This document shows positions 12,808 to 47,204 of a DNA stretch of 64,000 nucleotides, in pieces. How positions within the stretch are numbered: position 1 is the stretch's first letter; each line of letters opens with the position of its first letter. The stretch spans positions 1 through 64,000 of the IMG/VR virus record IMGVR_UViG_3300042691_017518; one strand, 5' to 3'. The stretch comes from a virus. The position numbers and the translations under genes were made by a program. The notes below the pieces were generated by a model. It was not told the DNA's origin. It ran no database searches and was given only the letters and a program-made list of their open reading frames with translations.

Positions 12808-12817
12808 ATAAAAAATT

Positions 12818-29600: not shown

Positions 29601-32600
29601 TAATCGTTGCATTAGAGCAATTGTATTAGCAGTAAAGGTGTTCATATTCAAGAACGATGCGATTGGATCTTTGGCGTTATCTACTACTGCTGCCAAGTCA
29701 GTTGCTAATAATTTAGAGATTCTTTGACCTTGATTATTATAAACTTGATTTAACATTAAGTATTCTTGGCCATTAACTGTTATAGGAGACTTCAAAGCTA
29801 AATTAGTAAACTGAGCTTTAGCATGATGAGTATTATGGTTAGCAAATATACCAATCAGTTGTTTACCCATCATATTACGACGGAAAAGTTCTAACTGTGT
29901 AGAAGGATAGTTAATGTTAAAGTCTGCGTCATCTAAATCATCAGCAGCTTTTGTTAATTCTTTACCTTTTAATTTATTAGCTTTAGTTACTTCACCAGCT
30001 TGTAATAATCTAATTCTAGCAGATGATTCTCTTAATGACTCGAAGTTACCTGGATTAAGAATAGATGCTGCAGTATTCTCGTTTTCTAATATACCGTGGA
30101 TAATATCTAATTTTTTATTATCTCTAGCTTTTTTAGAGTTAGCTGTTATAGGATTAAAATCTTTAGACATTAATCTTTTAGCAATAAAGTTAATAGCATT
30201 TTGATCTACTTCTTTTATTTCTGCCATAGCCTCGTTAAAAGGCATATATTCTTCCTCTAATTCTTTGTAAAATCCGTCAATAGTATCCTGAATAAATTTC
30301 ATCCAAACTGGATCAGGATCTTCACCAGTAGTTTGAGCCATTGCTAAAGCCGCTTTTTGATCGTCTTTTGCTTGCTTAATTGCTTCTTTAAGTTCTAAAA
30401 ATTCATCTGTTTCAGCAATTTCTTTTTTAAGTTCATATGCTTCTGCTTGTTTTTCAAGAAGATCTCTACGCACTTTAATCATTCTATCTTGATCCTCTTC
30501 TTTTTTAACAGTAGCTTTTATAAACCTAACGTAATCTCTGAAGTTTTTATAAATATTTTCTGCAACTAATGTAGCCTCTTCTTGTGTTTTAGCGCTATCA
30601 TAGTATCTTACAGTTTTAGCTTCACCTTTTTTATTTACAGTAAAAGCTTTAGCCATAAAATAAAGTTTATCAATATCGAAGTCAAGCCCTGCTACAGTTG
30701 TAACTTCTACAGGTAATATTACAGTTCCTCCCATTGAAATAGGGGTAAACCCTACTACTTCAATATTAAACATAGAGTATTTATCTTCCGTTGGAATACG
30801 ATATCCTACTATTTTTAATAAATCTGCTGCCTGCGGATTATTACGAAGTGCTTCAATGTCTACTTCTCCTTTAGAGTTCTTAGGAAAGAATTGTTTAGAC
30901 CAAGCAGGCAATAAAGCTTGATAAGTTATAGTTCCTGTCTCTTCATTTACAATCATTTTTAATTGATCAGATACTCCAAAAGCAGTAGTGTTGATCAAAG
31001 CGCCTCCATTAATTTTTTGCTTAGTTACACGATTCTTAAAGAAGGAGTTCATAACTGCTTCCATTTTGTAAGCAATCATAGGGTGGTATAAAGGCAATGC
31101 AGTTCTTACTGCTTTCTCACCATTCTTTAAAACTACCTCAATAGGAGCTAAAGCATCAAGATATTCTTGACCCATCTCTCTATCAATAACTTCCTTGCGT
31201 AGTTCCGCAGCTAATTTTTCGTAGTTAATTGTACCATCAGGATTTTCAAAGATTTCTCGTACATCTTCAAAAGATGTTTTTAAATCTTCTACTATTAATT
31301 CTTGAAATAATCTAGCAACTTCAGATCCTTTCATAGACTTTCCACCTACAGTATAATCTCCGTCTAATTTAATATCTCCGATAATTAGATTTCTTAACTG
31401 AGTACCAAAGTTACCACGCTCATCTACATAGTGAGGAGGAGTCTCTTGCTGAAGTCTCCAGTCTTCTGTTTTAAGATTTATAATTTCAGCATTTTCAGGA
31501 AGTTTATAACTACCATCTGGTTGTTCTTCATACTCAGTAAATCTTACTTTGTTTTCTTTATCTATAGTATTTCCTATACCTCCTACTTTAACAGCAGATT
31601 CAAAAATAGCTGTGTCAATTTTTCCTGATTCCATATCAGCATATAGTGCTGCAAGTTTTGGGTATAGAAAATTACCCGCTGCATCTTTCTTTTCTGCGAA
31701 AGATTTAGTAAGTACTGTTTCAGCATTTTTAATTTGTGTAGGAATTACCACTCCATCTTCTATTCTATGAGAAAAGATAAATGGTTTTTCTGGTTTAAAC
31801 GGAGGGTTTAAAAGATTTAAATCTTCTATAGTTTCTTTCCCCGCTTTCATTCTAACCATAGCTGCATCGTGTTCAGGAGTCCATCTTCCTAAACCTTCCA
31901 TAGTTTCTTTTCTTCTCTCTGCAGAAATAAAAGTAGCAGCATCTGTATAGTTATGATCAGTAGTAGTCCAAGTAGTTCTTAAAACTTTTTTCTCTGCTTC
32001 TGGTATATTAGCTCTATCAATAATAGCTAATATATGGGATTGAGTTTCTTTTTTTGTAGGAGCAGCTTCATCATTAAGAATGATAGCTTTATAATAATCT
32101 CTTTGATTTTCTGTATTTGAGAACATTCCTGGACTCAATACTTGCTTAAATCGTTTTTGATAATCTGTAGTGTTTTTATAAAACGCAGGATCTCCTCCTA
32201 GTAAAGTCGTTAACTGCGTGTTCATATAATAAGTATTCAATAAATAGCTTTTAAAGAAGTCAGTAGAATCTTTAATAGTTTTATCAATTACTTTTTCAGA
32301 GAAAGCGATCTTTCCAGTTGTATCGTTAACTGCTAGAATAACCCCTTTCTTCTTTAAACTATCTATTTCTTTTTTAAAGAACTTAGATTTAGTAATATCT
32401 GCATCTAAGAATTTTTCAATCTCTGCTCTAACCTTAGCTTCGTTAAAACCTTTTTTAGTATCTATTTTACCGTTAAGGAAATCTAGAATCTGAAACTTGG
32501 TTCCTTTATTAAAATAGTTAGGTATACGTCTTAGTACTGAATCAGTTTTACTTGTTTGTAGTTTTTTAATTCTACCAAATTCTGCTTCAGCCGTCTTTAC

Positions 32601-35600
32601 TAATCTATCTACTATTTCTTCTCTACTAAATTTTTCTCCTCGGATGTAAGCAATAGTAGGAGAATCTGAAGGAATAGGGAGTTTATAATAAGCTTTCTTT
32701 AAAGAGTTGCTGTTATAAAACATTGCCATAGAAGTAGCTTCCATTTCAATATCAGACATGTCAGCATAACTAGCTGCTTGCTTTTTACCTTTACGAGTAA
32801 GACCGTCTAATAAAACAGAGTGAAAGTTTTTCTGAAAGTTTGAATCTTGGTCAAGTAAATCTTCCAATATAGGTAAGTTACTCATCAAAGGATCTCCTGC
32901 AATCTCTTTTAAATACTCTTGTAATTTATCATAATCAGTAAACTTACTTAATTGCTTATCTAGGAATCCAGATAAAATAAGATTGTAGACAGTTTTATTA
33001 TCTATATTTCTAAAAGAGGAAACAACTTCTCTTTCTAGTACAGGAGTTATTTTTCTAGCAAGTTCTTCTATTAAAGTTTTTTCTTTTCTGTTTTCTTTTG
33101 TTATTAGCTCTTCTGTAGGTTTTAAGAAAGCAAAAACATTATTTCCTTCAGAAAGTTCCTTAGCTATTTTATTAACAGTACTTAAAAGGTCGATAAGATT
33201 TTTCCATTCAAACTTTCCTTCTTTAGGACTTACTACATTTTGTAAATCTTGTTTGCTTAAATTGATACCGTTTTTAGTAAGCAACTTAGATACGTCACTT
33301 AAAGTTCTATCAATAGTTTCTGCAGTTAAAGTACCTCCTTGAGCACTTTGATTTTTTACTAAGAAATCATAGATAGTTAAAAGATTTTTAGCAAACTGCT
33401 TTGCCTTTTCAGTATCAATAGTTTCTAAATCTTCTTTTAATAGAGGATTACTATGAGTTAAAAACTGTGCAATAATCTCTTCTTTAATTACTGCATCTAA
33501 ACCTTTTCTGTTAGAGTCAATAATAGAATAAGTCCCATTCTTTTCGTAGACAGCTTTAAACACTGCATAGTTTTTAGAACCTACTGAAGCAAATAATTCT
33601 GTTTTAAGAATAGGATCAACTGCTAATCTTTTTAGAATATCTTTAATATAAGGCTTTTCTTTTTCTATATCTTGAAGCTTCTGCATCATCTCTGACATAG
33701 AATAGCTATTAGCAATTTTAGAAATTAGATATCTAAATACTGCAGCGGGGTCTTCTTTAGACACTACTCCAAAACCATTTATCACTTGTGCAGCATTAGC
33801 ACGGTTGGATTTATATTTAGGGATAGTAGCAAAGAAAGCCTTGAGTCTTTGGCTTACTGATTCAAAAGCATTTGTTTCAATATGAGAAGTCATCCAAGAT
33901 TCTTCATAAACTTGGTCTTCATTTTCATATTCTTTAAAGCTATCTTCTTCAGCAGTCTCTACTTCTCTTGCAGTTTCTTTAGTATTTTTAATACCTGAAT
34001 AAGAGATTTTTAAACCTCTGCGTAGTAAGCTTTGATTGAATCTTTCTAGAAGATCTGTAACACCAGTAAATTGAAGTATCTTTTTCTCTACTAATTCTCC
34101 GTCTTCATTCTTTACTTTAATAGCAATTTTTTCAACTTTTTCTCCTCGATTAGTTAAAACATTATATAATTTTTCTAATCTTTTTAAGTGCTCTATTTTA
34201 TTTTTAGCAAGACTGTATTTCATCTCTCCTGCTAATCGAGATAAAACAGTTGAATACAACTTATGGACACCTATTTTAGAGATTACTTCTTTATCGTTTA
34301 GTCTAGATTCAGGATCTAACTTATTACGATACTGAGTAATTATCTCGTCCATTAAAGTTTCTAAGTACTCAAAAGCTTGTCTTTCTTCTTCTACATTATC
34401 GTATCTAAGATCAGGTGCAGTTTCTTGTCTAAGTCTTATACCTTCAGGCATTCTAGTGCTCTTAAACTTAATAGCATGTTTGTAAATGCCTAAGTTTATA
34501 TCTTGGAAAATATTATCTATGTTTATTCTAGCTTCTGGAAAGAAGAATACTTTAAGCATTTTTCTCATAGCATTAAACTGTTTTGCAAGTTTAACACTGC
34601 CATTAAAAGCATCAATTAAATCTCCAGCAGGAGTAGTAAGAGACTTCATAGCCTCAGAACGAAAATCAAAGCCAGCATCAGCTTCTTTAGTATTCTCTTC
34701 TGCTACAAAGTCCATGAATTTATCAGCAAGTAATTCCTCTACTTGTAAGAAAGAAGGCATTCTATAGATAACAGTGCCGTCTTTTTTAGTAACTTTTCTA
34801 AGAGGCAATTCATCTTTAAATCTTTCGTAAGCTTCGTTAATTAAATCTATTCTTACACTAAGAGGTAAAGCTAAGTTAAATACAATATGGAATGCTTCGT
34901 GGTAACTAGTTCCAGGTAAAGCATTTTTACTTAAGAATAAAGCAGCCTTAGTAAATACTCCATGAAGTTCTTTTCCATTTTTGCGAGCTTCTAATAATTG
35001 CTCATAAGTTTCTTTTGGAAGATATTTCTCAAGAGACTCTAAGTTTCTAAAAACTTTAACAGTTCCTTTTTTACCACTTCCTCTTGTATAAGCTTTGCCT
35101 ATTTTATCTTTAAGCCAGTTTAACTCTTCTTCTTGATTCCAAGTAGTAGCATCTTCTCTAGGAGCTAATCTAAAAGGAGTATCTGTATTAGGTTCTGGTC
35201 TGTCAAAGTTTCCATCAAAATCTAAATCATCATCATTCCAAGCAGCAGCTCCAGGAGTATAAGTCTCTGTGCTAGTAGGATCTTCTGGTACTATTTCGTT
35301 AGATACTTCTATAATAGAATTAAGGTCAGGTGCTTCGTCTTCAGGTAAACTTGTTTCTACTTCTGATTCTATAGTAGCAGCTAAATCAAAAGATGCTAAA
35401 GCTGCACCTATAATGCTGGACGCCGCTTCTGTAGCAGCTTCTTCTATATCAGATACTTTTTCATTTATCTTTCCTTCAGTCTTTAATTTTTCTTGAAAAG
35501 CTACAACATGTTTATCTTCAAAAAACTTTTTAGTTGCTGCAGATCTTACTGCGCTAGTAACATCAGGCCCTAAAGTAAATGTATCATTAGCATTTTGTCT

Positions 35601-36797
35601 TTTAATTTTCTGCACACTTTGCACAGCTACTACAGTAAGTTTACCGTCCATTACTTGAGCAGTAACTCTAGCAAAAGGATAGTTTCCTGACATACCTGGA
35701 ATATCAGTATAGTCTCTAATAATAAACTTACCTTCTTGAATATTAGAAAGATCTTCTACAGATGCATTAAATACAGGACTCTCTGCGCTTTTATTTTGAG
35801 AAGAGTTTTGTAAAGGAATTGTATTTTGTACTGCTGATGCTCCAGTTTGAGTTGCTGCAGGTAATGGCTTATCAAAAGTAAAGATCTTGTCTAGAGAATC
35901 TTTATCATTTTCAGACATCTGATATGCCTCAAGAACAAACGAACTAGAGTTAAAGAAGTTACCATCTTCTGAATATAAATCTGTACTAACAGCGCCATTG
36001 TTAGCCACTGTTTCATTATAGTTTCCTTTGTTAATTTTAGTATAGTCAATTCTAAATAACTGCTCTCCTAAAAAATCTGCTAATTCTTCATTAGTATTAA
36101 AACTATAAGGAACGTTTTTATTAGCTTTAGTATTAAACCTTACTACTTCAAATTTGCCATTTGTAAATTCTACCGTAGTTCTGTAGAGCATTTTCTCTAT
36201 AGTTTTTCTAGCAGCATTTATATTTTCATTAGTAGTGGCGGTTCTTAAAGTATTTATCGCATTCTTTAATGCAGTAAAGTTTTTAGTATCTTTAATTTTA
36301 TGAGACTTCATTTGCATAGGATATAATCCATATGCAGAAGGAACTAAAAGATAAGGTATACCTTCTTTTAATCTATTTATTTCTACATACAATTCCTTTG
36401 AAGAATTTTTTAAATCTTCTTGTATTTTAGCACTGTTAGTACCTTCTCCTGTTTGTAAAACACCTCCAACTTTAATAACCATAAGAAAAGGAATATTCTT
36501 CCCACTTTCTTCGCTAGCTTTTTTAAGTACTTCTATAGGATTATTGTTAGCAAAACTGCCATTTTCATTGCGCTCATTGTTAATCCTTGTTTGGGACTTA
36601 TGACGAATACGTAAAGTAATAGGAGCTTTCTTAGCTCCCATCTTTTCAAATTGCTTTAACTTAGCCTCGTTCATTTCGAGACCAGGAATATTTATTTTAT
36701 CGTCCTTGATTAACTGGTCAATAAGACCGTTATTAAGAATACTTTTGAATTCTTCTTCTGTACGCCATTGATTATCGTACCAGTACTTACAAGCCAT
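26622..36797 (-). CDS. giant virion RNA polymerase protein with zincin and NADAR domains, 3391 aa
   Basis: This is a crAss-like virion RNAP. The metal-binding motif LDFDID (D2039, D2041, D2043) lies after GYRIPTEDKYS and ILPVEVTTVAG, lining up with the RAPT...HPLVCxAFNADFDGD region of cellular RNAP beta-prime. In phi14:2 the homologous single-chain polymerase (gp66) is ejected and transcribes early genes. Upstream, residues about 600-660 hold a zinc-peptidase-like HEAFH motif (H633-H637). The C-terminus (about 3185-3335) is a NADAR/YbiA-like domain: SEHAYQTWK with E3222, KQHPELVQG, and GENKFIEAL match the YbiA blocks SEHYFQAQK, EQHAELRAL and GKNRLGYLL. At 3391 aa it is much longer than the phi14:2 enzyme (about 2180 aa as I recall). 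Self-processing by the zincin is a hypothesis. Confidence 0.9.
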   Translation of the reverse strand: MACKYWYDNQWRTEEEFKSILNNGLIDQLIKDDKINIPGLEMNEAKLKQFEKMGAKKAPITLRIRHKSQTRINNERNENGSFANNNPIEVLKKASEESGKNIPFLMVIKVGGVLQTGEGTNSAKIQEDLKNSSKELYVEINRLKEGIPYLLVPSAYGLYPMQMKSHKIKDTKNFTALKNAINTLRTATTNENINAARKTIEKMLYRTTVEFTNGKFEVVRFNTKANKNVPYSFNTNEELADFLGEQLFRIDYTKINKGNYNETVANNGAVSTDLYSEDGNFFNSSSFVLEAYQMSENDKDSLDKIFTFDKPLPAATQTGASAVQNTIPLQNSSQNKSAESPVFNASVEDLSNIQEGKFIIRDYTDIPGMSGNYPFARVTAQVMDGKLTVVAVQSVQKIKRQNANDTFTLGPDVTSAVRSAATKKFFEDKHVVAFQEKLKTEGKINEKVSDIEEAATEAASSIIGAALASFDLAATIESEVETSLPEDEAPDLNSIIEVSNEIVPEDPTSTETYTPGAAAWNDDDLDFDGNFDRPEPNTDTPFRLAPREDATTWNQEEELNWLKDKIGKAYTRGSGKKGTVKVFRNLESLEKYLPKETYEQLLEARKNGKELHGVFTKAALFLSKNALPGTSYHEAFHIVFNLALPLSVRIDLINEAYERFKDELPLRKVTKKDGTVIYRMPSFLQVEELLADKFMDFVAEENTKEADAGFDFRSEAMKSLTTPAGDLIDAFNGSVKLAKQFNAMRKMLKVFFFPEARINIDNIFQDINLGIYKHAIKFKSTRMPEGIRLRQETAPDLRYDNVEEERQAFEYLETLMDEIITQYRNKLDPESRLNDKEVISKIGVHKLYSTVLSRLAGEMKYSLAKNKIEHLKRLEKLYNVLTNRGEKVEKIAIKVKNEDGELVEKKILQFTGVTDLLERFNQSLLRRGLKISYSGIKNTKETAREVETAEEDSFKEYENEDQVYEESWMTSHIETNAFESVSQRLKAFFATIPKYKSNRANAAQVINGFGVVSKEDPAAVFRYLISKIANSYSMSEMMQKLQDIEKEKPYIKDILKRLAVDPILKTELFASVGSKNYAVFKAVYEKNGTYSIIDSNRKGLDAVIKEEIIAQFLTHSNPLLKEDLETIDTEKAKQFAKNLLTIYDFLVKNQSAQGGTLTAETIDRTLSDVSKLLTKNGINLSKQDLQNVVSPKEGKFEWKNLIDLLSTVNKIAKELSEGNNVFAFLKPTEELITKENRKEKTLIEELARKITPVLEREVVSSFRNIDNKTVYNLILSGFLDKQLSKFTDYDKLQEYLKEIAGDPLMSNLPILEDLLDQDSNFQKNFHSVLLDGLTRKGKKQAASYADMSDIEMEATSMAMFYNSNSLKKAYYKLPIPSDSPTIAYIRGEKFSREEIVDRLVKTAEAEFGRIKKLQTSKTDSVLRRIPNYFNKGTKFQILDFLNGKIDTKKGFNEAKVRAEIEKFLDADITKSKFFKKEIDSLKKKGVILAVNDTTGKIAFSEKVIDKTIKDSTDFFKSYLLNTYYMNTQLTTLLGGDPAFYKNTTDYQKRFKQVLSPGMFSNTENQRDYYKAIILNDEAAPTKKETQSHILAIIDRANIPEAEKKVLRTTWTTTDHNYTDAATFISAERRKETMEGLGRWTPEHDAAMVRMKAGKETIEDLNLLNPPFKPEKPFIFSHRIEDGVVIPTQIKNAETVLTKSFAEKKDAAGNFLYPKLAALYADMESGKIDTAIFESAVKVGGIGNTIDKENKVRFTEYEEQPDGSYKLPENAEIINLKTEDWRLQQETPPHYVDERGNFGTQLRNLIIGDIKLDGDYTVGGKSMKGSEVARLFQELIVEDLKTSFEDVREIFENPDGTINYEKLAAELRKEVIDREMGQEYLDALAPIEVVLKNGEKAVRTALPLYHPMIAYKMEAVMNSFFKNRVTKQKINGGALINTTAFGVSDQLKMIVNEETGTITYQALLPAWSKQFFPKNSKGEVDIEALRNNPQAADLLKIVGYRIPTEDKYSMFNIEVVGFTPISMGGTVILPVEVTTVAGLDFDIDKLYFMAKAFTVNKKGEAKTVRYYDSAKTQEEATLVAENIYKNFRDYVRFIKATVKKEEDQDRMIKVRRDLLEKQAEAYELKKEIAETDEFLELKEAIKQAKDDQKAALAMAQTTGEDPDPVWMKFIQDTIDGFYKELEEEYMPFNEAMAEIKEVDQNAINFIAKRLMSKDFNPITANSKKARDNKKLDIIHGILENENTAASILNPGNFESLRESSARIRLLQAGEVTKANKLKGKELTKAADDLDDADFNINYPSTQLELFRRNMMGKQLIGIFANHNTHHAKAQFTNLALKSPITVNGQEYLMLNQVYNNQGQRISKLLATDLAAVVDNAKDPIASFLNMNTFTANTIALMQRLGIQEDFIYAFINQPVILELTQKYYNDRGSLSEEKQFSDIKNKWQGLLNAKLKEAGIDPATVAAVDFTTDLLEKNLNPDKSVDYYIVQSAVLKAFGDWYETAGELGQGIQASRVDTTGVGPTSAANYTMLQKQRNVLEKIKKDTNKIQGAEEIFWGGSEQIMIPGFTKYGLISPINVLNKIFPSIGTINEQGGFSFSILGELKNTFAEFKRNKSLTEKEAQMINTHFINFIASNFPFFRYSQSKDILGSTPNRLMELKNKIPADAPYKMFLDKLYVVEANAYSPIRRIEYYNTGKKPVEIQRVKYAWERMMQDSNPEVKELALDLVKYTYFANGYGFGPFSFANMIPVKFWTNEFQIANNIVDSKGNPFNVFLEQSLDSQKLSDDKAIWEKRFIDQFLRNNYDKENLVPAVKIDKTIGEKEGGTTGTQLNNVVTEAAKNSKGGIIQTPKGALIINKDKNKGLIPNNTPVPFIKVYGERNAIYLYKYVPTKFDQKNPDNFDGKRDIDTVMYQRVSTLGTSNFTLEYDYFKDIENSVLSDIKATPNPKVSNTPAPSNQIADEIASNDAAMLAAIGETPTAADVTTTVAPTKVTNEESIPELGSILPTTQSSTSVEGKVSNQLTEEDVKWLRANLRLIETTYKSRNLFGARDTELKTPLLFDNNKTKVIRIDPDPAGTSAIVFERDAKTWMVKLEEKDNKVSPRLYEWKDVYGEGNFSFYATDGSTASDLENINKSGLMDLINQLYEDTNIPDPGDKQLIVSNALQQKYGLKRTYKDIINELKPAQPATSVKPENISSKGSEFAKKLTNVGNTVGLTYKGKEYVNSEHAYQTWKSGEFNQAGYDLKGGKVRGGKIGDTFSIMTDILTEKLKQHPELVQGINERGGLAYIEQSTHNVIGDKFWESTGENKFIEALAKAYQNISTTQPSTPVTPAKPAFLASLDTATTEKMGLFEQEYWNEYQEATAKLPEEERMPQEVFISLNYEQQIAAIEHAKNC

Positions 36798-36813: not shown

Positions 36814-37287
36814 TTATCCAGCAAGATCTTTATCAAATAGAAGCATGTCGTTAGTAAGAGCTAATCTAGCTAATAAATCTAAATATTCCCCTACTGCCCC
36901 TACTTGATGTGTAGTAAAGTCTTGTAACAAAAGTACAACTTTTAAAGAAAGATCTGCACGTCTTGCAGACTTTTCATACTCATTAAGTAGATCCTTTTCC
37001 ATTTGGTAAGCCATTTCTAAAGCTGACTTAATATCAGTACAGCTACAGTCTACTGCATCTAATGCCTCAACACTTAGTTCTCCTCCTAAATCATTAGCAA
37101 ACTTTTCTATTTTTAAGTAATGCTCACGTTCTCCATTAGACTCATCTAAGAAAAACTTTTCTGCGCCAAAATAAGATAAAGACTTCATTCTGTTGCTTAG
37201 TTTTAAATAAGCTTGTGAAGCTGTTAGTTCTAGTTTACCAAACTTGTTGAGTTCTTTTTGTTCTATGTCTGTAAGTAATTTTTCCAT
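36814..37287 (-). CDS. ferritin (non-haem, ferroxidase type)
   Basis: 157 aa from ATG 37287, 2 bases after the upstream stop; an ATG at 37296 would add three residues and overlap. It aligns by eye along its length with bacterial ferritin FtnA. The helix A ligand E20 (GKLELTAS), E53 and H56 (GEREHYLKI, the ExxH motif), E97 (YQMEKDLL) and Q128 (LLQDFTTHQ) match FtnA E17, E50, H53, E94 and Q127, and the ending LFDKDL matches YFIDKEL. The ferroxidase centre therefore looks complete. It lies between genes for two giant ejection proteins in the late operon. Packaging in the virion is possible but unproven. Alternatives are Dps or a ruberythrin-like protein; the C-terminus favours Ftn. Confidence 0.85.
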   Translation of the reverse strand: MEKLLTDIEQKELNKFGKLELTASQAYLKLSNRMKSLSYFGAEKFFLDESNGEREHYLKIEKFANDLGGELSVEALDAVDCSCTDIKSALEMAYQMEKDLLNEYEKSARRADLSLKVVLLLQDFTTHQVGAVGEYLDLLARLALTNDMLLFDKDLAG

Positions 37288-37289
37288 AA

Positions 37290-40200
37290 TTAACATTCTT
37301 TTTTAAACTGTTCGTTGAAGAACACATTTACTTTTGATTTAAGCAATTGTTTTATAATATCATTAAAGTTATTATCTATTATTTCTTTTCTTGATGGAGT
37401 TCCTTCTAAAGCAGCTAGTTCTGCATAAGCACTACTATCTTTTCTACCAGCTTCTTCAAGAGCTTGCATAGCTTGCTCTCTAGTCATTGTGCCTTTTTTA
37501 ACAGCATCTATGTATTCTGCATCATATTTAGCATCTATATCAACAGCTAATTCTTTTCCTCTTTTTTCAATAGCTACTTCTAATTCATTTATTTCATCTA
37601 ATAATCTTTTTGCAGGAGTAAGAGCATAAGAGCTTTTTAAACCTGTAAGTTTACTTTGAAGTTTTGCAAAAGCAGAGTCAGACATTACATCAATAGTCCT
37701 ATATGCTTCTTGTCTTCTTCTTTCTATATCAGCTTTCTTAGCTTCTATGTCAATTGGAGTTTCTGTTTCTTCTTCAATAGCTATTCCAGATTCTTGTGCT
37801 ACGATAGCTTTACGAAGAGCTAAGAAATGCTCAGGCATACCTTTTTTAAATGCAGGTAGTTGGCCTATAAAAGTATCTCCTTGATAAACATTTATTGCTA
37901 CATCTTCAGGAGAACGATCTACTTTATTATAATCATTGTCAGATAACTTAAAAGTAGCTTCTACAGTATTTTCATAAAGCTCTTTATTATTTAAGAAATC
38001 AGGAGAGTTAATTAAAGCATTATCAGAAGGTTGATCAGATTTTTCTCCTCTAGGATTAGTCCATGCTTCCCATCTACCTGTTTTAGGATTACGAACTAGC
38101 TGTCCATCTTTTATTTTCTTATCATATAAAAGAGGTATAATAGAATTATTACCAACATTACTAGTTTCAAAGATTGACGCTTCTTCTATTTTCTTAGTCT
38201 CACTTGCATAAAAATCTGGATCAAACTCAGCATCTTCATCTAAAGGTGCAGGTTGATTAGCATCAGTAGGGTCTGCAAAATCTTGCTGTAGGGTTGGTTC
38301 AGTTTTCTCTTCATTAAAAGTTTTTAATAACTCTGTGAGTGCATTAGAAATTTTTCCTGCAGCATTTGGATCATTGGCAAGTACTTCAGCAAGTTGGTCT
38401 ATATTATATAATCCAGGAATAGCTTTATTCTCTTTTTCTAATTTATCAATGATTTCTCTAAACAATGCAGGTTTTGATTGTAGAGTTTGAATAAGAGTAT
38501 CTGTATCTACAACAGTGGCATCTTTAGCTTTAGGATCTAAATCAGCAATTAAACTAGCTAATTCTTGATCTGTAGCAGCTAATTCCGCAGCAGCTCTTTC
38601 ATCTACTATACTAGTGTTGCCTGTTAAAGATTTCTCATCAGCTGCTACTTTATTTAAAGTGTCAGAAGACTTAGCTGCGGCAGCAGCTTTTTTAGTATCC
38701 TCTTCAGCTTCTTGAGCCATTGCTATTTTAGAATTCTCATATAACTGCGTGTAGATATTTAAAAAGTCTTTTGCGCCTTTATTAGTAAAGAGCACATCAT
38801 ACATTTTAGAAATCTTAGCTTTACGTTCTTTGATTAAAATTAAATCTTGTAATAAAGGCTCTATTTGTTTTCTGTATAGATTATAACTTGTTGGGTCGTT
38901 TTCTTTCCAGTTATTAAGTTCTGCTTGATATAGTTCTTTTGCAGTAGTAGCAAACTCTGCTGAGTCTTGAGCACTAACTCCTGCAATTTGAGCAATAAGT
39001 TTATTTAAAACTTTAGGACTTACATTCCCTTTACTTAGTTTATTAACTACTCCTTGTAGTTCATCTTCACGATTTTCTAAATTTAAAGTAGCGCCATAAA
39101 GGAAAGTCATTTGATCTTTTAAAGGTTCTGTAAGACCTAATGGATCTTCTACACCTTTAAAGTTTTTTCTCCAGAAATCTACAAATACTTTGCTATCATT
39201 AAAAGCTGTGTCTACTTCATTGTGAGCTTTAATAATATTATCTGTGTTAAATCTAGCTTTATCTAAAGCAGCTTTTCTAGTTTCTTCTGTAAACTCTAGA
39301 ACTCCTTGGATACCAAACTGCTGATTAAAAGTTTCTAAAGGCAGTTGCTCAAGAGCATCGAGTTCTTGAATAACAGTTTCTCCAATACGATTTTTAACAC
39401 GAGTTGAAACAAAAGAATGGAATTGTTCGTATTCTTTGTTTTTATAATTAAAGATATCCCCCTTATCTAAAGCTTCATCCATCTCTGATTGAATGGTAAA
39501 GTTTTTAGCCATGTTCTCAAAGTTATTTTTAAGAACAGGGTTAACAGGATTATCATTAATATTTTTAGCAGTAGCTCTAGCTTTTTCTACTTCTTTTTTA
39601 ACTTCTTTAATTTCTTGTCTAACTCCTCCATAAGATTCCCAACCTCTAGAAAGTTCTCCTGTTTGAGCATCGTATTTAAAAGGCAGCTTTAATCCTAACA
39701 TACCCATCAAGAATCCTATACTCATAGAATCAAACCCTTCTACTGATCCCCCGTAGTTACGAGCAGCAGTAGTCATTGACTTTAAGAAAGTAGTAGAGTT
39801 CTTGATTGCTTCATCAGAGAATTGAGCACTCCAATAGTTAGAATATCCTTCCTGAATTACTCCTTGTGCGTATTCTTCAAATCCTTCAGTTAATCCAGAT
39901 TTTAAAGCAGTTGTACCGTAACCTAAAGCTCTTCCAAATTTACCCATTGCATCCGCACGAGCAACTACTTTTCCTCCTTTGGCAACAGTTCCTGTCATCC
40001 TTAAAGGATTAAGGCGGGAAATAGCTTGATTTACTCTATAGCCAGAACTAAAAGCTTTAGAGAACTGAATCATATTAGAAAAACCTACAAGAGGAATGTT
40101 GGTAAACCAAGCTAACTCAGATGCATCCTCTGCTCCTTTTTTAATAAGAGCCATTTTTGCTGGAGGAATAACTGCTTCCTCCATATCAGAATTCTGAAGA

Positions 40201-41363
40201 ATTTTAAAAATTTCTTCGTCAGTAAAATTCTGAGTTTTTAAATAATTTCTTTTAGCTTGATCTAATGTTTGATCATAAGTATCTCTAGCAATTAAACTAG
40301 ACTCATATCCAGCAGAACGAACCATAGAAGTAGCCGTACCTATACCTGCTCTATAAGTCTTAGTTAGGTTAGCTATCTTTCTCATGTTATTAAAGTCAGA
40401 TAATTGATCTAATCCTCTAATAACTTTATATCCTTTAGCAAATGAGTTTGTTAATTTAGCTGCTCCTACAAGTGTATTGCCAAATAAATTAGATGCTTGT
40501 GCAGCAAGTCTTGCAGTGTTACCTGCTAATATAGCAGATCCTGTTCCAAATGTTGCAGCAGTAATAGCTCCTGCAGCCATTTCAGTTAATACTGCTCCTG
40601 CAACAAAAGATACTGCTGGAGCTACATCAGCATTAAGAGACTTCATTGGATGTGTGATAAACCTAGAAAAGAAATTTTTAGGTTGACCATTTACATCATA
40701 AGCATAATCAGATCCTCCGTAAACAGCTAAATGTTTATCAAGACCTTGATCCATAGTTTCCCATGCATCAAATACACCATTGTTAAAAATATTTTGAGCA
40801 TCCCAAGTAAATAATCCTTTAGCTAAACCATATGTTAAAGGAACTAAACCTCCTACATTTAAAGCCGTCTTGCCTACTAATTTTAGTAAAGTGTTTCCTG
40901 ATTCTGCTAAAAATCCTTGATTCTCGTCAAGCTCGTCTAAGAATTTTTTAACTTGAGTATTATAATTCTTTTGTTTAAAAGCAGCATAATCCTGTAAATC
41001 TCTGTCAAAACGAATTCCAAATTTATTAGGATCTAATAACTGAACCATTCTCGTTCCGTTATCATTGATAAACTTTTCTCTTTCAAATTTATCTGGAATT
41101 CCTTTAGCTAAATCTATAGGAGTAAATAGCTGATTTATATTGCCTTGCACTAATAAATTACTTCCAGCAATATTAGTACCTGACTTATATTCAAAAGCAG
41201 CTTTACCTAAACCTGTTTGCCAAGCTTCCTGTCTAGTTTTAGGTTCTCTATATGCTATTTCAGGACGAAACTCTGGAGTAGTAATCTTTCCATTATCACT
41301 AGCAGTATTAACTCCTTTAACTGTTTTAGGGTCAACTGTTTCTTCTTTATCGTCTTCTGCCAT
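37290..41363 (-). CDS. large membrane-active virion/ejection protein, 1357 aa
   Basis: The third of the giant late proteins. An acidic start is followed by two hydrophobic, glycine/alanine-rich regions at about residues 160-185 and 240-300 (AVSFVAGAVLTEMAAGAITAA type) that could enter membranes. Long charged coiled coil and low-complexity acidic stretches follow to the end. No enzyme motif is visible. In crAss-like phages a similar large protein sits beside the RNAP and is ejected with it. A pore or conduit role is my inference from the hydrophobic segments. The start ATG at 41363 follows a 34-base gap holding a promoter-like box. Confidence 0.78.
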   Translation of the reverse strand: MAEDDKEETVDPKTVKGVNTASDNGKITTPEFRPEIAYREPKTRQEAWQTGLGKAAFEYKSGTNIAGSNLLVQGNINQLFTPIDLAKGIPDKFEREKFINDNGTRMVQLLDPNKFGIRFDRDLQDYAAFKQKNYNTQVKKFLDELDENQGFLAESGNTLLKLVGKTALNVGGLVPLTYGLAKGLFTWDAQNIFNNGVFDAWETMDQGLDKHLAVYGGSDYAYDVNGQPKNFFSRFITHPMKSLNADVAPAVSFVAGAVLTEMAAGAITAATFGTGSAILAGNTARLAAQASNLFGNTLVGAAKLTNSFAKGYKVIRGLDQLSDFNNMRKIANLTKTYRAGIGTATSMVRSAGYESSLIARDTYDQTLDQAKRNYLKTQNFTDEEIFKILQNSDMEEAVIPPAKMALIKKGAEDASELAWFTNIPLVGFSNMIQFSKAFSSGYRVNQAISRLNPLRMTGTVAKGGKVVARADAMGKFGRALGYGTTALKSGLTEGFEEYAQGVIQEGYSNYWSAQFSDEAIKNSTTFLKSMTTAARNYGGSVEGFDSMSIGFLMGMLGLKLPFKYDAQTGELSRGWESYGGVRQEIKEVKKEVEKARATAKNINDNPVNPVLKNNFENMAKNFTIQSEMDEALDKGDIFNYKNKEYEQFHSFVSTRVKNRIGETVIQELDALEQLPLETFNQQFGIQGVLEFTEETRKAALDKARFNTDNIIKAHNEVDTAFNDSKVFVDFWRKNFKGVEDPLGLTEPLKDQMTFLYGATLNLENREDELQGVVNKLSKGNVSPKVLNKLIAQIAGVSAQDSAEFATTAKELYQAELNNWKENDPTSYNLYRKQIEPLLQDLILIKERKAKISKMYDVLFTNKGAKDFLNIYTQLYENSKIAMAQEAEEDTKKAAAAAKSSDTLNKVAADEKSLTGNTSIVDERAAAELAATDQELASLIADLDPKAKDATVVDTDTLIQTLQSKPALFREIIDKLEKENKAIPGLYNIDQLAEVLANDPNAAGKISNALTELLKTFNEEKTEPTLQQDFADPTDANQPAPLDEDAEFDPDFYASETKKIEEASIFETSNVGNNSIIPLLYDKKIKDGQLVRNPKTGRWEAWTNPRGEKSDQPSDNALINSPDFLNNKELYENTVEATFKLSDNDYNKVDRSPEDVAINVYQGDTFIGQLPAFKKGMPEHFLALRKAIVAQESGIAIEEETETPIDIEAKKADIERRRQEAYRTIDVMSDSAFAKLQSKLTGLKSSYALTPAKRLLDEINELEVAIEKRGKELAVDIDAKYDAEYIDAVKKGTMTREQAMQALEEAGRKDSSAYAELAALEGTPSRKEIIDNNFNDIIKQLLKSKVNVFFNEQFKKEC

Positions 41364-41397: not shown

Positions 41398-44250
41398 TTA
41401 GAATTTTCCTCCTGCATGTTGGCTTAGTTCTTTTACTATTCCAGGAGAATCAAATGCAGGCACATACATACTACCATCCCAACCTTCTACTAAGTCTTCT
41501 TCTCTTCCTGTTCCGTATATTAAATCCATAGAAACTAAAGCACTTGGTATATTATTACCAATAGTATTTAGATTATAACTACCTACGTCTTCCCAACTAG
41601 TTTTACCGTCTCTGTTCATAGTACCTTTGTTTACTTGAGCTACTATTTCTCTATCAACTACTTTATAAACAACTTGGAAAGCATTATAAGTACCATTATC
41701 ATTCTGATGCCATGCTGCAGGTGCTTGAATAATTTCTGTGTATTTGTGATCATTTTTTACAGCATCATCTAAACGAGCAGCCATTTTTAAATAAGCTTCT
41801 CGTCTTCCTGCATTTTGCACCATGTGAATAGGAGCAAAGTTTTTTAAATTTTTAGTAATAGATCGCATATCATTATAAGCAGTAGCAGCTTCACCTATAT
41901 CAATATAGTTAGCTTCTACGTTGTTAGTAATGTTATTTGATCGACCTTTTACACTGATATATAAATCTTGTGGATTAGCTTTATTAAATGCAGCTATTTC
42001 TTCTTTAGTAGGAGGAGTAGTTTTCAAAGAAGCTTCTGACCTTCCTTGTCCAGATATCAACCATTTAGCTACAGCCTCTTTTCCTGTTTGTGTATTAGGG
42101 TCAAATTGTTCTTGACGAACATATCGTAAAATAACATTGCCATCTCTATCTACACCATCATAGTGAGGTTCTGTATTATAATTAGCAAGAGTAAACTCAT
42201 TTTCACCAGTTTCTTTAGATTCTCCAGTTAAGATATTAAAGTTTACTTTTTTAACATCACTAGCGCCTCTTTGGTTTTGTAAAACATATTGTTTAATTTC
42301 TTCAGAAGCTCCTCCAGCAAAAGTATCAAAACCTTTAGTCATAATAACTTCTTCTCCTACAGCACTTGTTGCTTGGACTGATAAGTTCCATTTATAAGCT
42401 TTCATCACATTATTAGCTAATTGTGTGTAAGCATCTTTAGTAGGGGCTTTTACATCAGGCATTGTTCTTGGAAACATTGCATCTTTTTGTTCTGCTGTTA
42501 ATGAAACATTATTAGCAACTTCAAATTCTTGAATACGTTGTCTTCTACCTTCTTCATCAACTCTTTGTACTTCTGAACCTACTTTAAGATAATCATTAGC
42601 ATGAGCCCTCAAAGTTTCTAAAAACTTTGCAGGATCTGTTGAATATTCCTTCTCATATAATTTTCTTAATTCAGGAGTAATATAATCAGCATTTATTTCT
42701 GCATCTAAAATATTATCTAAAGTTCTAGTATCATCTGTAAGAGCAATACGTTTTTCTTCTTTATCTTGATATAATAGATCAAGTTCTGCAGATAGCTTAG
42801 CTTTTTCTTCTGTACTATTTGCTTTAACTAACTCTTCTTTCTTTAAAGTTATTTCATTTTCTTTCTCTCCTATACCTTTATTAAACTCTCTCATACGACC
42901 TAAAGTGACAAATAAATCTTTAGAAGTATTTTTTACTTCATTAAATTCAGGTTGTTGCTCAGGTGCAATATAATCTGCTTTATAATTTTTAATATCAGGA
43001 ATACTATCTGTAGGAGTATTTTTTATTTGCTCAAAAGCATTTACGGCATTATTATGTGCAATATTCTCATCAGTAGTAGCAGTAGACGTTCCTGATATAA
43101 TTTTATTTTTATCACTAGTAATTCCTGTTATGTTAGTAGCAATGTCTATTTCTTTCAATAGTTTAAGTGCGTCATTTGCTTTTGCTTGACCTGCTGTATC
43201 TACTTGATCTGTGAAAGTATATGTTTTAGATTTCATATCTCTTATGTCAGATGCAGCATAACTAGTAGTTCCAAACCTACCATTTGCTTCGTCAAAGAAT
43301 AATCCTTTAGAAAATTTATCAAAAGTTCCATTATTTATTGCAGCGTTAGCATCGTTTAATGTCTTTTCTTTTTCACCTTGTAAATTTGCTATTTGTTTTT
43401 GAGCAGTTTGTGCAGCATTAGGATCATCTAAAAATTGTTCCCAGTATGCTATCTTATCATCATATTGATTAATCTTAGCATTTACAAATTTTTCTTTGAA
43501 TTCAGGATCTGTATTGTCGTTGTAATACCATTTATAATCAGCATCTTCATTTACCCAATCTTTATATTGATCAGAAGTTCTTAAAAATCTTTCAATTTCG
43601 CCAGCTACTTGCTCTCTATCTCTTACTTTTAATAAAGTTTGAATACGCTCTTTTGTAAAAGCATCTACTTGATTAGTAGTTACCCATTCTTCAATTTGTT
43701 CTTCAGCCATACCTGCAAGCTTTAGAGATTCTTCTCTAAGCTCTTTTTCCATATTCTTCATACGAGGATGAACATTTATAGAAGTATAGGTATCGTCATC
43801 TTTTTTATAGTCAGTTCCTTTAAAACTATTTTTAACTTTAAAGTCCCAAACATCAAAATCTTTTTGAGTTATATCTCCTTTATCAACTCTTTCTTTTTCT
43901 TTTTTAACTGCTTCTTTATAAGCTTCGTAATTACCTTTAATAGCATTAGTCTCAGTATCTTTATTATAAACTTTATTAAGCTCTCTTAACTTAGAAGTTG
44001 CTTGTCTATAATTTCCTGTAGATATTAAGTTGTTTGCTAAATCATCTCTTTTTTGCTCAATTTCTTTTAAAAGATCTTTTGCTCTAGTATCATCTTGTGA
44101 TAATCTAGCTAAGGCAAAATCTGCTGATTCAATACTTTCTTTGGCAGTATCAAATTGAGCCTGCATATCAGATAATGGTTGAGCAAAAGCCTCTAATCCT
44201 AGAGGCTTGTATTCAGTTTTTAAAGGTGTTGATAATGGAGTAACTGCCAT
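41398..44250 (-). CDS. large coiled-coil virion protein, 950 aa (cargo/ejection type)
   Basis: No enzyme motif. Residues about 20-260 and 440-560 are rich in heptads and charged residues (for example KDLLKEIEQKRDDL), and the rest looks soluble and mixed. It follows the lysozyme-bearing protein in the late operon, 11 bases downstream. In phicrAss001 and relatives, long helical cargo proteins occupy this position between the tail proteins and the RNAP group; I assign a cargo or ejection role on that basis only. Confidence 0.7.
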   Translation of the reverse strand: MAVTPLSTPLKTEYKPLGLEAFAQPLSDMQAQFDTAKESIESADFALARLSQDDTRAKDLLKEIEQKRDDLANNLISTGNYRQATSKLRELNKVYNKDTETNAIKGNYEAYKEAVKKEKERVDKGDITQKDFDVWDFKVKNSFKGTDYKKDDDTYTSINVHPRMKNMEKELREESLKLAGMAEEQIEEWVTTNQVDAFTKERIQTLLKVRDREQVAGEIERFLRTSDQYKDWVNEDADYKWYYNDNTDPEFKEKFVNAKINQYDDKIAYWEQFLDDPNAAQTAQKQIANLQGEKEKTLNDANAAINNGTFDKFSKGLFFDEANGRFGTTSYAASDIRDMKSKTYTFTDQVDTAGQAKANDALKLLKEIDIATNITGITSDKNKIISGTSTATTDENIAHNNAVNAFEQIKNTPTDSIPDIKNYKADYIAPEQQPEFNEVKNTSKDLFVTLGRMREFNKGIGEKENEITLKKEELVKANSTEEKAKLSAELDLLYQDKEEKRIALTDDTRTLDNILDAEINADYITPELRKLYEKEYSTDPAKFLETLRAHANDYLKVGSEVQRVDEEGRRQRIQEFEVANNVSLTAEQKDAMFPRTMPDVKAPTKDAYTQLANNVMKAYKWNLSVQATSAVGEEVIMTKGFDTFAGGASEEIKQYVLQNQRGASDVKKVNFNILTGESKETGENEFTLANYNTEPHYDGVDRDGNVILRYVRQEQFDPNTQTGKEAVAKWLISGQGRSEASLKTTPPTKEEIAAFNKANPQDLYISVKGRSNNITNNVEANYIDIGEAATAYNDMRSITKNLKNFAPIHMVQNAGRREAYLKMAARLDDAVKNDHKYTEIIQAPAAWHQNDNGTYNAFQVVYKVVDREIVAQVNKGTMNRDGKTSWEDVGSYNLNTIGNNIPSALVSMDLIYGTGREEDLVEGWDGSMYVPAFDSPGIVKELSQHAGGKF

Positions 44251-44261
44251 GATTAATATTT

Positions 44262-47204
44262 TTATTTTCCTTGAAAGTATTTTTCTCTTAATACATCTAT
44301 GTAGGGAGTATATCCGAATTTTTTAAATCTTGTAATATCTGGTGCTCCTAGTGCTGCATATTGCATAGCTAAGTCATTAGAAATTTGAGTATTTCTCCAA
44401 TCTTTAACTCCAGTAAGAGCTTCTTTACCGTGTTCTTGTCTAGCTGTTTGCGAAGCAAGATTAAGTTGTTCTGCAGCTGCTCTAGCTTTATCGTATGCAG
44501 AAGTGTTAATATCTCTTACATGTATTTTATCTGCTAGATAAGCATTCTCTTCTGCCATACCAATATTTCCTAATTGTTTAGCACGTTCAGCTGCTATAGC
44601 CTGTGCATACCCTGGAGTATTAGTAGTGCCCTTAATAGTTTTTAAAGTAGCTGCAAAGTTTTCTCTTGCATCATTTTCAGCCTGAGTATAGTCAGGACGA
44701 ATAGCTTCCATTGGAGTATAGAAATCTTTAGCACTATAACTTTTAGGTTTAGAAAATGCTTGATAAGCATTATAAGCAATAGGAGCTGCATTAGCAATTA
44801 CATCCCAAGCAGTTCCTTTAGTACTGATATCTTGTGTAGTATCTGTAAGAGTAGTATCTACATCGTAATTACCTCCATTATCATACATATGTCCGCCCAT
44901 CCTTTCTACGTTATCTAAAGGCATATACATTTGTTGACGAGGCATTTGAAAAGAACCACCGTATTTATAAATCTGTGTATTAGTCAATCCTTGACCCATT
45001 GGACCTGCATGATTTTTCCAATCAGGATTAATCTGAGGAAACTCGTGGTAAGAAACTTTTGGTTGATAACCTCCATACTTAGCATAGCTACCTGCTGCCA
45101 TATCTGTTGTCAACATAGCATTAGGATACATGTTTTGAGGTGTACCAGGTAAAGCTGCTACAGGTTGTAGATTATTATCAGTAATAGGATTAAGTTGTTT
45201 CTGTGCCGTATCAGCATTTTCTTGACTAATTCTTTGTGTTGCTGCAGTTGCTGCTGCATTAGTTATTCCTGCACCAACTGTTGCCGCTGCAGATAAAGCT
45301 GGGCCTGCAAAAGGTATAAAGTTTAATAGAGGCGCAGCCATTCCAAGTCCTTTAGATATTTTTTGAACTTTTTCTGGATCATCAATATTTCCTCCAAACT
45401 CATACATGTTTCCTCCATAACCACACATTTTTCCGCCTCTCATATACATAGAGCCTCCGTAACTCATAGGCAATTGAGAAGAAGGAATTATTTCTCCTCC
45501 GCCTTGTGGAGCAGCCATTTGTTGCATCATTGCAGGATCCATAGGAGCTCCACCTTGTTGTTGCATCATAGCTATTTCTTCAGGAGAAGGTTGTCCTTCC
45601 ATTCCTTGTTGCATAGCCATATCTTGTTGTGCAGCCATTTGATCTTCAGGACTCATTTCCATCTGTCCTCCAGAAGCACCGCCTTGTAATAAGGCGCCCA
45701 TCTCTTCTGGATATTTAGTTATCATCTCTTGCATGTCAGCTTGCATTTGCATCTGCTTTTGCAATTCTTGAGCATTCATTAGAGTTTCTAATTCAGTATC
45801 TCTAGCTTTATCTTCTATACGATCATAGCCTTTTTCTCTACGAGAGTTACCATTTCTACTATTAATATTTTTAGATACTTCTGCAAAAGTTTTACCTACA
45901 AAATTTTTAGGTAAGTTTAATTCTTTAGCAATATCTTTATCTACTTTAATTTTATCAGAGAAGATATAATTAGCAGCATTAAGTTTTGTCTCTCCTTGTT
46001 CTACAAGATTAGCTCTTCCATCAGGAGCAGTTCCTTGTGGAATTCCTCCAAGAGGATTTTCTTCATGAGAACCTCCTGCATTAAACTCAGTTAAAGGATC
46101 CATCGACCCTCCTTCAGCAAAAGATCTAGACTTAATTTTATTCTGAACTTCTGTAGGCAATGCTCTAAAACCAGGATTATTAAATCCTCCTTGAGCATAC
46201 ATATGACTCCCCATAGCATTTTGTTTAAAATTCATAGTTCCTCCTTGTTTAAATATTGATTGTCCGCTTCCAAACCATCCTTTTGGAGCAGTCATTGATA
46301 TAGGTTTTGTTTCTTTAACTTCTGTTTCATAAGGTACTGAACCATACATACCTGGACTACTACTAGGTTCTGTACTAATTTCAGGACTAAATCCTTCAAG
46401 CATTTGAGGTGCTAAGGTAGGTAATTGGTTTACATGCACTTCTGGTTTAGCTGTAAAAGTACTAGGTTTTAATTTTTCACTTTTTGTTGTACCAAAACTT
46501 TTAGGTCTAGTATCTCCTGATTCAGGATTATTTTCTTTAGGTGCTACGTAATCTTCATACAACTTTGTACCATAATTAGGAGCAGTAGCATAGCCAGCTT
46601 TTTCTAAACCTATAGCAAAGTCTTTTGCTGTAGCACTTGCTAAAGCTTTTTGGTAACGTTGGTTAGTTTCTAAAAAAGCTCTATGTGCAGCAAATCCTTC
46701 AAAAGCATTATTGAACTCCATAAAACTAGATTTAGTTTTAGTTCCTGCGCCTTCTTTAGTATCTGCTTCTTTTCCTTTAGAAACATCTATACCTCGTTCT
46801 GCTAATTTATTTCTAACAGCTTCGTTATGAGATTTAATTCCAAAGTAATTATAAGGTGAAGATAATCTAGCACCTCCGCTAGATTCAAATTGCCATTGTC
46901 CCGCAACTACTTTAGCTTGTTCTGGATTATATCCTACAGCTTCTGCTAGTAGTTTAGCTTGATTATAAGTTTGTGGTTCGTTAATGCCTAAATTAAACCA
47001 TGCTAATACTTTATCAGGATTAACTCCAGGCATTCTCATATAATGTTCTACTTCAGGAGGTAAATCTCCATAAGTAGTTTCATATGCTGACAAATCAGGA
47101 GTACCTTCTTCTAAATCTCCTCCCATAGCATATGAATTAAAATAGATACTTGGATTAAATCCTAAAGCTCTTAAGTCTTCTTTTTTATTTGAATCTTTTG
47201 CCAT
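44262..47204 (-). CDS. GH73-like peptidoglycan hydrolase with GG-motif repeat region, 980 aa
   Basis: Residues about 75-235 form a glucosaminidase (FlgJ/GH73) domain: catalytic-glutamate motif GQWQFESSGG with E107, YNYFGIKSH (118-126), a FEGFAAHRAFLETNQRY helix and AGYATAPNY near the end. This would open host peptidoglycan at DNA entry. The middle and C-terminal parts contain many copies of an aromatic-x-x-Gly-Gly-x-hydrophobic motif (FKQGGTM, YAQGGFN, FAEGGSM, FNAGGSH, YEFGGNI) and a Met/Gln-rich low-complexity tract (about 490-575). The GGSHEENPLGG...GETKLN...YIFSD block (about 378-423) is a pattern I have seen in other crAss-like phage proteins. The next gene shares the GG motifs. Confidence 0.8.
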   Translation of the reverse strand: MAKDSNKKEDLRALGFNPSIYFNSYAMGGDLEEGTPDLSAYETTYGDLPPEVEHYMRMPGVNPDKVLAWFNLGINEPQTYNQAKLLAEAVGYNPEQAKVVAGQWQFESSGGARLSSPYNYFGIKSHNEAVRNKLAERGIDVSKGKEADTKEGAGTKTKSSFMEFNNAFEGFAAHRAFLETNQRYQKALASATAKDFAIGLEKAGYATAPNYGTKLYEDYVAPKENNPESGDTRPKSFGTTKSEKLKPSTFTAKPEVHVNQLPTLAPQMLEGFSPEISTEPSSSPGMYGSVPYETEVKETKPISMTAPKGWFGSGQSIFKQGGTMNFKQNAMGSHMYAQGGFNNPGFRALPTEVQNKIKSRSFAEGGSMDPLTEFNAGGSHEENPLGGIPQGTAPDGRANLVEQGETKLNAANYIFSDKIKVDKDIAKELNLPKNFVGKTFAEVSKNINSRNGNSRREKGYDRIEDKARDTELETLMNAQELQKQMQMQADMQEMITKYPEEMGALLQGGASGGQMEMSPEDQMAAQQDMAMQQGMEGQPSPEEIAMMQQQGGAPMDPAMMQQMAAPQGGGEIIPSSQLPMSYGGSMYMRGGKMCGYGGNMYEFGGNIDDPEKVQKISKGLGMAAPLLNFIPFAGPALSAAATVGAGITNAAATAATQRISQENADTAQKQLNPITDNNLQPVAALPGTPQNMYPNAMLTTDMAAGSYAKYGGYQPKVSYHEFPQINPDWKNHAGPMGQGLTNTQIYKYGGSFQMPRQQMYMPLDNVERMGGHMYDNGGNYDVDTTLTDTTQDISTKGTAWDVIANAAPIAYNAYQAFSKPKSYSAKDFYTPMEAIRPDYTQAENDARENFAATLKTIKGTTNTPGYAQAIAAERAKQLGNIGMAEENAYLADKIHVRDINTSAYDKARAAAEQLNLASQTARQEHGKEALTGVKDWRNTQISNDLAMQYAALGAPDITRFKKFGYTPYIDVLREKYFQGK

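What the first reader, a model, noticed from the sequence alone, without database searches (positions are those of the whole stretch)
36814..37287. Ferritin gene inside the virion-RNAP ejection cluster of a crAss-like phage
The 157 aa product aligns by eye along its length with FtnA, and every A-site ferroxidase ligand is kept (E20, E53, H56, E97, plus Q128); even the LFDKDL ending matches. It sits between two giant late genes whose products are ejected in related phages. A ferritin made late, and perhaps packaged, could store iron, remove Fe(II)/H2O2 to protect incoming DNA, or exploit host iron uptake. That part is inference; the family match is seen in the sequence. I do not know whether other crAss-like phages carry one here.
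Basis: partly seen in the sequence, partly recalled or inferred. Interest (0 to 1): 0.85.

Follow-up and report, generated by a model that had tools for sequence, protein, structure and literature searches.

The report
Phage ferritin beside virion RNA polymerase
A lineage of uncultured crAss-like phages carries its own ferritin, the iron-oxidising and iron-storing cage protein, wedged between the genes for the giant RNA polymerase proteins that such phages carry inside their particles, which suggests that these phages control iron during infection.

Summary
Window 36814-37287(-) encodes a 157-aa ferritin (Pfam PF00210, E=3e-14) with a confident five-helix model (pLDDT 94.5) that superposes on solved ferritins over its whole length (Z 22-23). 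All diiron ferroxidase residues (E20, Y27, E53, H56, E97, Q128) are invariant in 29 phage homologues. The window is a Crassvirales phage. The ferritin lies between homologues of PhicrAss001 gp47 (upstream) and gp47 C-terminus plus gp50 (downstream), which are virion-borne RNA polymerase proteins. It recurs in 33 other viral contigs; in 29 of 30 junctions read it directly precedes the same gene. It is under strong purifying selection (dN/dS 0.04-0.13), forms one phage clade about 30% identical to cellular ferritins, keeps the A/B iron sites and has lost the bacterial C site. Two related lineages lack it: four distinct junctions show a clean empty site and one a fused gene. No annotated phage record held has a homologue and no paper found reports one. 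Most likely it is a working iron-oxidising cage made with the virion RNAP proteins. Packaging or ejection is unproven. The likeness to FtnA is loose (18% identity; metal site of H-chain type).

The parts
36814..37287 (-). Ferritin gene, 157 aa; diiron residues E20, Y27, E53, H56, E97, Q128
   Evidence: PF00210 E=3e-14; model pLDDT 94.5; Z 22-23 to solved ferritins; ligands invariant 29/29
37290..41363 (-). Upstream giant gene, 1357 aa, homologue of the N-terminal part of PhicrAss001 gp47 (virion RNAP-associated cargo); its stop lies 2 nt before the ferritin ATG
   Evidence: blastp 24% over 798 aa, E=1e-21; junction spacing
26622..36797 (-). Downstream giant gene, 3391 aa: gp47 C-terminal part fused to gp50-like RNA polymerase; DFDID motif at residue 2039; N-terminus MACKYWYD..EEEFKSILNNGLIDQLI
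   Evidence: blastp to gp50 E=3e-61 and gp47 E=3e-8; motif
20754..26618 (-). 1954-aa gene, homologue of PhicrAss001 gp49 (virion RNAP-associated cargo)
   Evidence: blastp E=8e-34
41398..44250 (-). 950-aa gene of the same block, conserved upstream neighbour in relatives; function not assigned
   Evidence: synteny
44262..47204 (-). 980-aa gene of the cargo block with endolysin-type matches
   Evidence: PHROGs endolysin matches
52373..56746 (-). Crassvirus muzzle protein
   Evidence: PF25731 E=1e-136
56756..57580 (-). Crassvirus tail ring protein 1
   Evidence: PF24228 E=4e-43
58380..59102 (-). Crassvirus tail ring protein 2
   Evidence: PF25702 E=2e-31

Best explanation
The gene encodes a real, catalytically equipped ferritin that a crAss-like phage lineage keeps as part of its virion RNA polymerase/ejection module. 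It is probably co-translated with the giant RNA polymerase genes when virions are made, assembles into a cage, and oxidises Fe(II) at an H-chain-like two-iron centre, so that free iron (and the O2 or H2O2 that reacts with it) is removed from the cell in which phage DNA and virions are being made. Shown: family, predicted fold, conserved diiron ligands, loss of site C, purifying selection, conserved location and tight gene spacing. Inferred: late expression, cage assembly, ferroxidase activity and the protective role. Packaging is possible and not needed for this explanation.
For: PF00210 match; confident five-helix models for the window protein and a divergent homologue; full-length superposition on 24-mer ferritins; all A/B ligands invariant in 29 phage proteins while the rest diverges to about 45% identity; dN/dS 0.04-0.13; start close to, or overlapping by 1 nt, the upstream stop in relatives, with promoter-like signals no commoner than chance in the region; same slot in 29 of 30 junctions. 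Site C changes in other ferritins can leave the diiron centre oxidising iron, with faster regeneration in E. coli FtnA and faster mineralisation in diatom ferritin (PMC4653698).
Against: No expression, assembly or activity data. In P. furiosus ferritin, site C changes abolished oxidation (as reported in PMC4653698), so loss of site C is not always harmless. Related lineages live without the gene. The protective role is one of several uses of an iron-oxidising cage.
Confidence: 0.55

Rival explanations
1. The ferritin is itself virion cargo: it is packaged near the portal with the RNA polymerase proteins and ejected into the next host, where it removes iron and peroxide around the incoming DNA and polymerase or supplies iron early.
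For: It lies between genes whose homologues gp47, gp49 and gp50 are virion cargo (PMC10172136). The slot is kept across two RNAP module architectures and a distant lineage. The reported capsid cargo zone (about 5.1 MDa) would hold a cage of about 0.42 MDa (arithmetic: 24 x about 17.6 kDa).
Against: No proteomics. It lacks the terminal sequence signatures of the neighbouring cargo genes and any extra tail relative to cellular ferritins. Tail constrictions under 50 A (PMC10172136) would stop an intact 12-nm cage, and unassembled ferritin subunits were catalytically dead in P. furiosus (PMC4646333).
Confidence: 0.3
2. The protein keeps the ferritin fold but now serves as a scaffold or assembly partner for the RNA polymerase proteins, with iron oxidation secondary or lost.
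For: Constant position at the polymerase split point; phage-specific invariant residues E49, E105, K116, E134, D137, R141 not conserved in cellular ferritins; loss of site C.
Against: The complete A/B ligand set plus Y27 and Q128 is invariant in all 29, which is not expected if catalysis were lost. The gene is absent in lineages with homologous polymerase genes.
Confidence: 0.07
3. Iron carrier on or in the virion used to reach the host through its iron uptake systems (the Ferrojan Horse idea).
For: The idea exists in the literature (papers listed) and ferritin could load iron.
Against: The gene is in the internal cargo/RNAP block, not with receptor-binding genes; nothing ties it to the virion surface.
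Confidence: 0.04
4. A passenger gene recently picked up from a host, without a special link to the module.
For: Presence varies between lineages, and ferritin sequences recombine independently of the flanking genes.
Against: Best sampled cellular relative is about 30% identical; phage proteins form one fully supported clade; slot conserved in 29 of 30 junctions; strong purifying selection.
Confidence: 0.04

Closest known systems
Non-haem ferritins (PF00210): E. coli FtnA, Vibrio cholerae and Thermotoga maritima ferritins
   Same: Five-helix subunit with E helix, full-length superposition, same A/B diiron ligands and Tyr, Gln on helix D
   Different: About 18-21% identity; site C glutamates (FtnA E49, E126, E130; E129 mostly) absent; encoded by a phage within its virion RNAP block
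Eukaryotic H-type ferritins (human H chain, shrimp ferritin)
   Same: Two-metal centre without the bacterial site C; best sequence-profile hits in PDB are animal ferritins (E about 1e-12)
   Different: 22-26% identity; shorter loop before the E helix; phage-invariant E49 (Gln or His at that position in the cellular ferritins aligned)
Diatom ferritin PmFTN
   Same: Glu at the PmFTN Glu-44 position (window E49, 29/29), inferred from spacing to the shared ligands Glu-48/His-51
   Different: PmFTN also has Glu-47 and Glu-130, which the phage proteins lack
Phage Dps and ferritin-like proteins (Lactobacillus phages, Gratiaviridae; uncultured marine phage ferritin A0A8D9C9X5)
   Same: Ferritin-superfamily iron proteins encoded by phages
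   Different: Dps lacks the E helix; the marine phage ferritin is 22% identical by Foldseek; none was seen in a crassvirus cargo cluster
PhicrAss001 cargo region (gp45-gp50)
   Same: Homologous RNAP and cargo proteins, muzzle and rings
   Different: No ferritin in PhicrAss001; its gp47 is one protein and in the other orientation to gp50/gp49

Membership tests
Ferritin (PF00210) | Significant match to the family HMM | tested here: met
   E=3e-14, 53.6 bits, cut-off 24.5
Ferritin (PF00210) | Four-helix bundle with long B-C crossover and C-terminal E helix | tested here: met
   Model helices 7-36, 40-66, 86-108, 115-145, 148-156; Z 22-23 across residues 1-157
Ferritin (PF00210) | Diiron A/B site ligands (FtnA E17, E50, H53, E94, with Y24 and Q127) | tested here: met
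   Window E20, E53, H56, E97, Y27, Q128; 29/29 phage proteins
Ferritin (PF00210) | 24-subunit cage | not testable with these tools
   Single-chain prediction only
Ferritin (PF00210) | Ferroxidase activity and mineral core | not testable with these tools
   Needs purified protein
Bacterial non-haem Ftn (FtnA type) | Third iron site C (FtnA E49, E126, E129, E130) | tested here: not met
   Columns are Glu in 27/27 Bacteroidota ferritins; in 29 phage proteins E49, E126 and E130 are never Glu, and E129 is Glu in 8
Bacterioferritin | Glu and His at the helix D metal ligands (Bfr E127/H130, recalled) | tested here: not met
   Window has Q128 and A131; Q invariant
Dps | No E helix; inter-subunit site; often Lys-rich N-terminus | tested here: not met
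   E helix predicted; net charge -10 and no Lys-rich tail; inter-subunit site itself not tested
Crassvirales | Muzzle and ring proteins, gp50-like RNAP | tested here: met
   PF25731, PF24228, PF25702; crAss_CARG1 in one ORF; gp50 homology E=3e-61
Virion cargo protein | Present inside the virion | not testable with these tools
   Needs virion proteomics

The most novel reading that the evidence does not exclude
A phage packages a ferritin with its virion RNA polymerase and injects it, so that an iron-oxidising protein enters the new host with the polymerase and the DNA.
Probability: 0.27. Interest if true: 0.85.

Novelty: new variant of a known kind. Interest (0 to 1): 0.62.

Why it matters
Phage Dps-like proteins have been reported. 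I found no report of a ferritin conserved in a crassvirus lineage and embedded in the gene block for the particle-borne RNA polymerase. It makes the long-discussed question of whether phages manage iron testable on a named protein with a clear assay. The phage clade (intact A/B site, no site C, Glu at the diatom Glu-44 position) is also a natural test of what site C does in ferritins.

Tried and rejected
Considered chance or a spurious ORF: rejected by HMM, structure, 33 homologous contigs and dN/dS. Considered Dps, bacterioferritin and rubrerythrin: rejected as above (rubrerythrin PF02915 matches far more weakly, E=3.5e-5). Considered recent host acquisition: no cellular relative in genome contigs by pattern scan, and the best of about 420 Bacteroidota genomes is about 30% identical; other phyla were not sampled beyond E. 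coli. Looked for ferritin in the annotated phage collection with the window and a group III protein: none; FtnA finds only six other, unannotated records. PHROGs gave no useful family. First thought the ferritin always travels with its RNAP module; rejected, since L005/L007 ferritins are 98% identical with neighbours at about 67%, and L020/L021 ferritins 85% with unalignable neighbours. First took the 36 ferritin-free records as true absences; most are short of the junction, so only junctions actually read were used. No iron-dependent ribonucleotide reductase was seen among the window ORFs scanned. A promoter scan was uninformative. Habitat and host could not be determined.

Full report
What is there. 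The minus-strand ORF at 36814-37287 encodes 157 aa. Relatives show that MEKLL is the true start, because the upstream in-frame ATG is followed by a stop in several of them. Pfam Ferritin matches at E=3e-14 and PDB sequence profiles return ferritins. The AlphaFold2 model is confident (pLDDT 94.5, pTM 0.88), with helices A-D and a short E helix. It superposes on Vibrio, Thermotoga, shrimp and E. coli ferritins with Z 22-23 over essentially the whole chain. A divergent homologue (L045, 45% identical) gives the same five-helix fold.

The metal site. Aligned to E. coli FtnA, the window has E20/E17, Y27/Y24, E53/E50, H56/H53, E97/E94 and Q128/Q127, and all six are invariant in 29 phage proteins. The site C glutamates, present in 27 of 27 Bacteroidota ferritins aligned, are gone: E49 is G, S or D; E126 is H, I, K, F or L; E130 is A or S; only E129 survives, in 8 of 29. 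Window E49 is invariant in the phages and Gln or His in cells. By ligand spacing it is the position of Glu-44 in diatom ferritin, an inner-surface and site C ligand (PMC4653698). So the protein has a two-iron, H-chain-like centre, not the three-iron FtnA centre. In E. coli FtnA, site C mutants give Fe:O2 near 2:1 and regenerate faster, and in diatom ferritin the equivalent change speeds mineralisation; in P. furiosus it kills activity. The prediction for the phage protein is therefore oxidation with quick release of Fe(III) to the cavity, but this must be measured.

The phage. Muzzle, ring 1 and ring 2 Pfam families and a cargo-1 domain place the window in Crassvirales. Its ring 1 is about 30% identical or less to that of the best annotated phages, so the lineage is far from the named ones. 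The 3391-aa gene downstream of the ferritin matches PhicrAss001 gp50 (E=3e-61, with the DFDID/DFDVD motif) and, near its N-terminus, the C-terminal part of gp47. The 1357-aa gene upstream matches the N-terminal part of gp47, and the 1954-aa gene matches gp49. gp47, gp49 and gp50 were found in PhicrAss001 virions (PMC10172136). The ferritin thus sits exactly where a gp47-like protein is divided in two.

Distribution. Two scans of viral contigs found 33 other records. Of 28 records checked, including the window's own, 17 carry muzzle and ring 1 over the cut-off. Two more are fragments without them. Nine (group III) have only weak muzzle matches in seven, plus a P22-like portal, SU10-like capsid protein and a weak ring 2 match in the one examined, so they are remote relatives. 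In 30 junctions read, the ferritin starts between 1 nt inside and 12 nt after the upstream stop. In 29 it is followed within 1-16 nt by a gene beginning MACxY...EEEFKxxLNNGLLDxLI or its group III form. The exception, L045, has a longer gap and a different downstream start.

Absence. Relatives read at the homologous junction without ferritin (L185 and its twin L196, L186, L187, L188) have the same kind of upstream end, a spacer of about 30 nt and the same downstream start; in L189 the two giant genes are one 4631-aa gene. On the ring 1 tree these fall in two places. Records sharing 74% or more ring 1 identity that lack ferritin hits mostly end before the junction, including G029, so no true absence was seen there.

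Evolution. The phage ferritins form one fully supported clade apart from Bacteroidota and E. coli ferritins, although the root is unknown and long branches meet. The nearest sampled cellular protein is 30% identical. dN/dS is 0.04-0.13, though several dS values are near saturation. Two unalignable versions of the RNAP genes interleave on the ring 1 tree, with the ferritin at the same split point in both, and ferritins recombine partly independently of neighbours and of ring 1.

How it most likely works. Tight spacing behind a virion RNAP gene, in a block of virion genes on one strand, implies co-expression with particle proteins (inference; promoter-like signals are no commoner than chance). 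The simplest role is an iron-oxidising cage made in the infected cell, lowering free Fe(II) and its peroxide chemistry while DNA and virions accumulate. Packaging with the RNAP is attractive from position but lacks evidence. The tail is narrower than a cage, so subunits would have to pass and reassemble, and unassembled subunits were inactive in P. furiosus (PMC4646333). I put packaging near 0.3.

Verdict. Real, conserved and functionally equipped; a new variant of a known family in an unexpected place. Literature searches in the held library found no crassvirus ferritin; related reports are Dps and manganese catalase in Gratiaviridae (PMC8008677).

Noticed in passing
L005 and L006; ring 1 loci L110 and L111: Two unalignable architectures of the virion RNAP genes (1357/3391 type and about 3018/1479-2478 type) interleave among close relatives: ring 1 is 99% identical in this pair while the RNAP genes barely align.
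   Followed up: partly
window 37290-37400 and 36700-36797; L018, L040 and others: The split point of the RNAP genes has conserved ends in all groups: upstream ...NFDxIV..L...KKC(D/E/K) stop in most, downstream MACxY...EEEFKxxLNNGLLDxLI; the role of these terminal pieces is unknown.
   Followed up: partly
window 3391-aa protein residues 3178-3329; L014 downstream gene residues 1533-1685: A 153-aa stretch is 96% identical between two RNAP proteins that are otherwise about 23% identical, which suggests a recently exchanged domain.
   Followed up: no
L189:4253-18148: A 4631-aa ORF fuses homologues of the window's 1357-aa and 3391-aa proteins, with no ferritin.
   Followed up: partly
L018:40-8007 and L018:8495-12931: The alternative RNAP proteins contain a NUDIX domain (E=4.5e-18) and a SprT-like metalloprotease match (just under the Pfam cut-off).
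   Followed up: no
window 11632-13987(+): A VWA-like putative metallopeptidase (DUF2201) gene next to an AAA ATPase gene.
   Followed up: no
window ORFs in alignment A3, exact ORF not identified: Spore photoproduct lyase-like (radical SAM) and uracil-DNA glycosylase family matches.
   Followed up: no
L037-L045: Group III records look like a remote crassvirus-related lineage (weak muzzle and ring 2 matches) that shares the ferritin at 44-50% identity while virion proteins are almost unrecognisable.
   Followed up: partly
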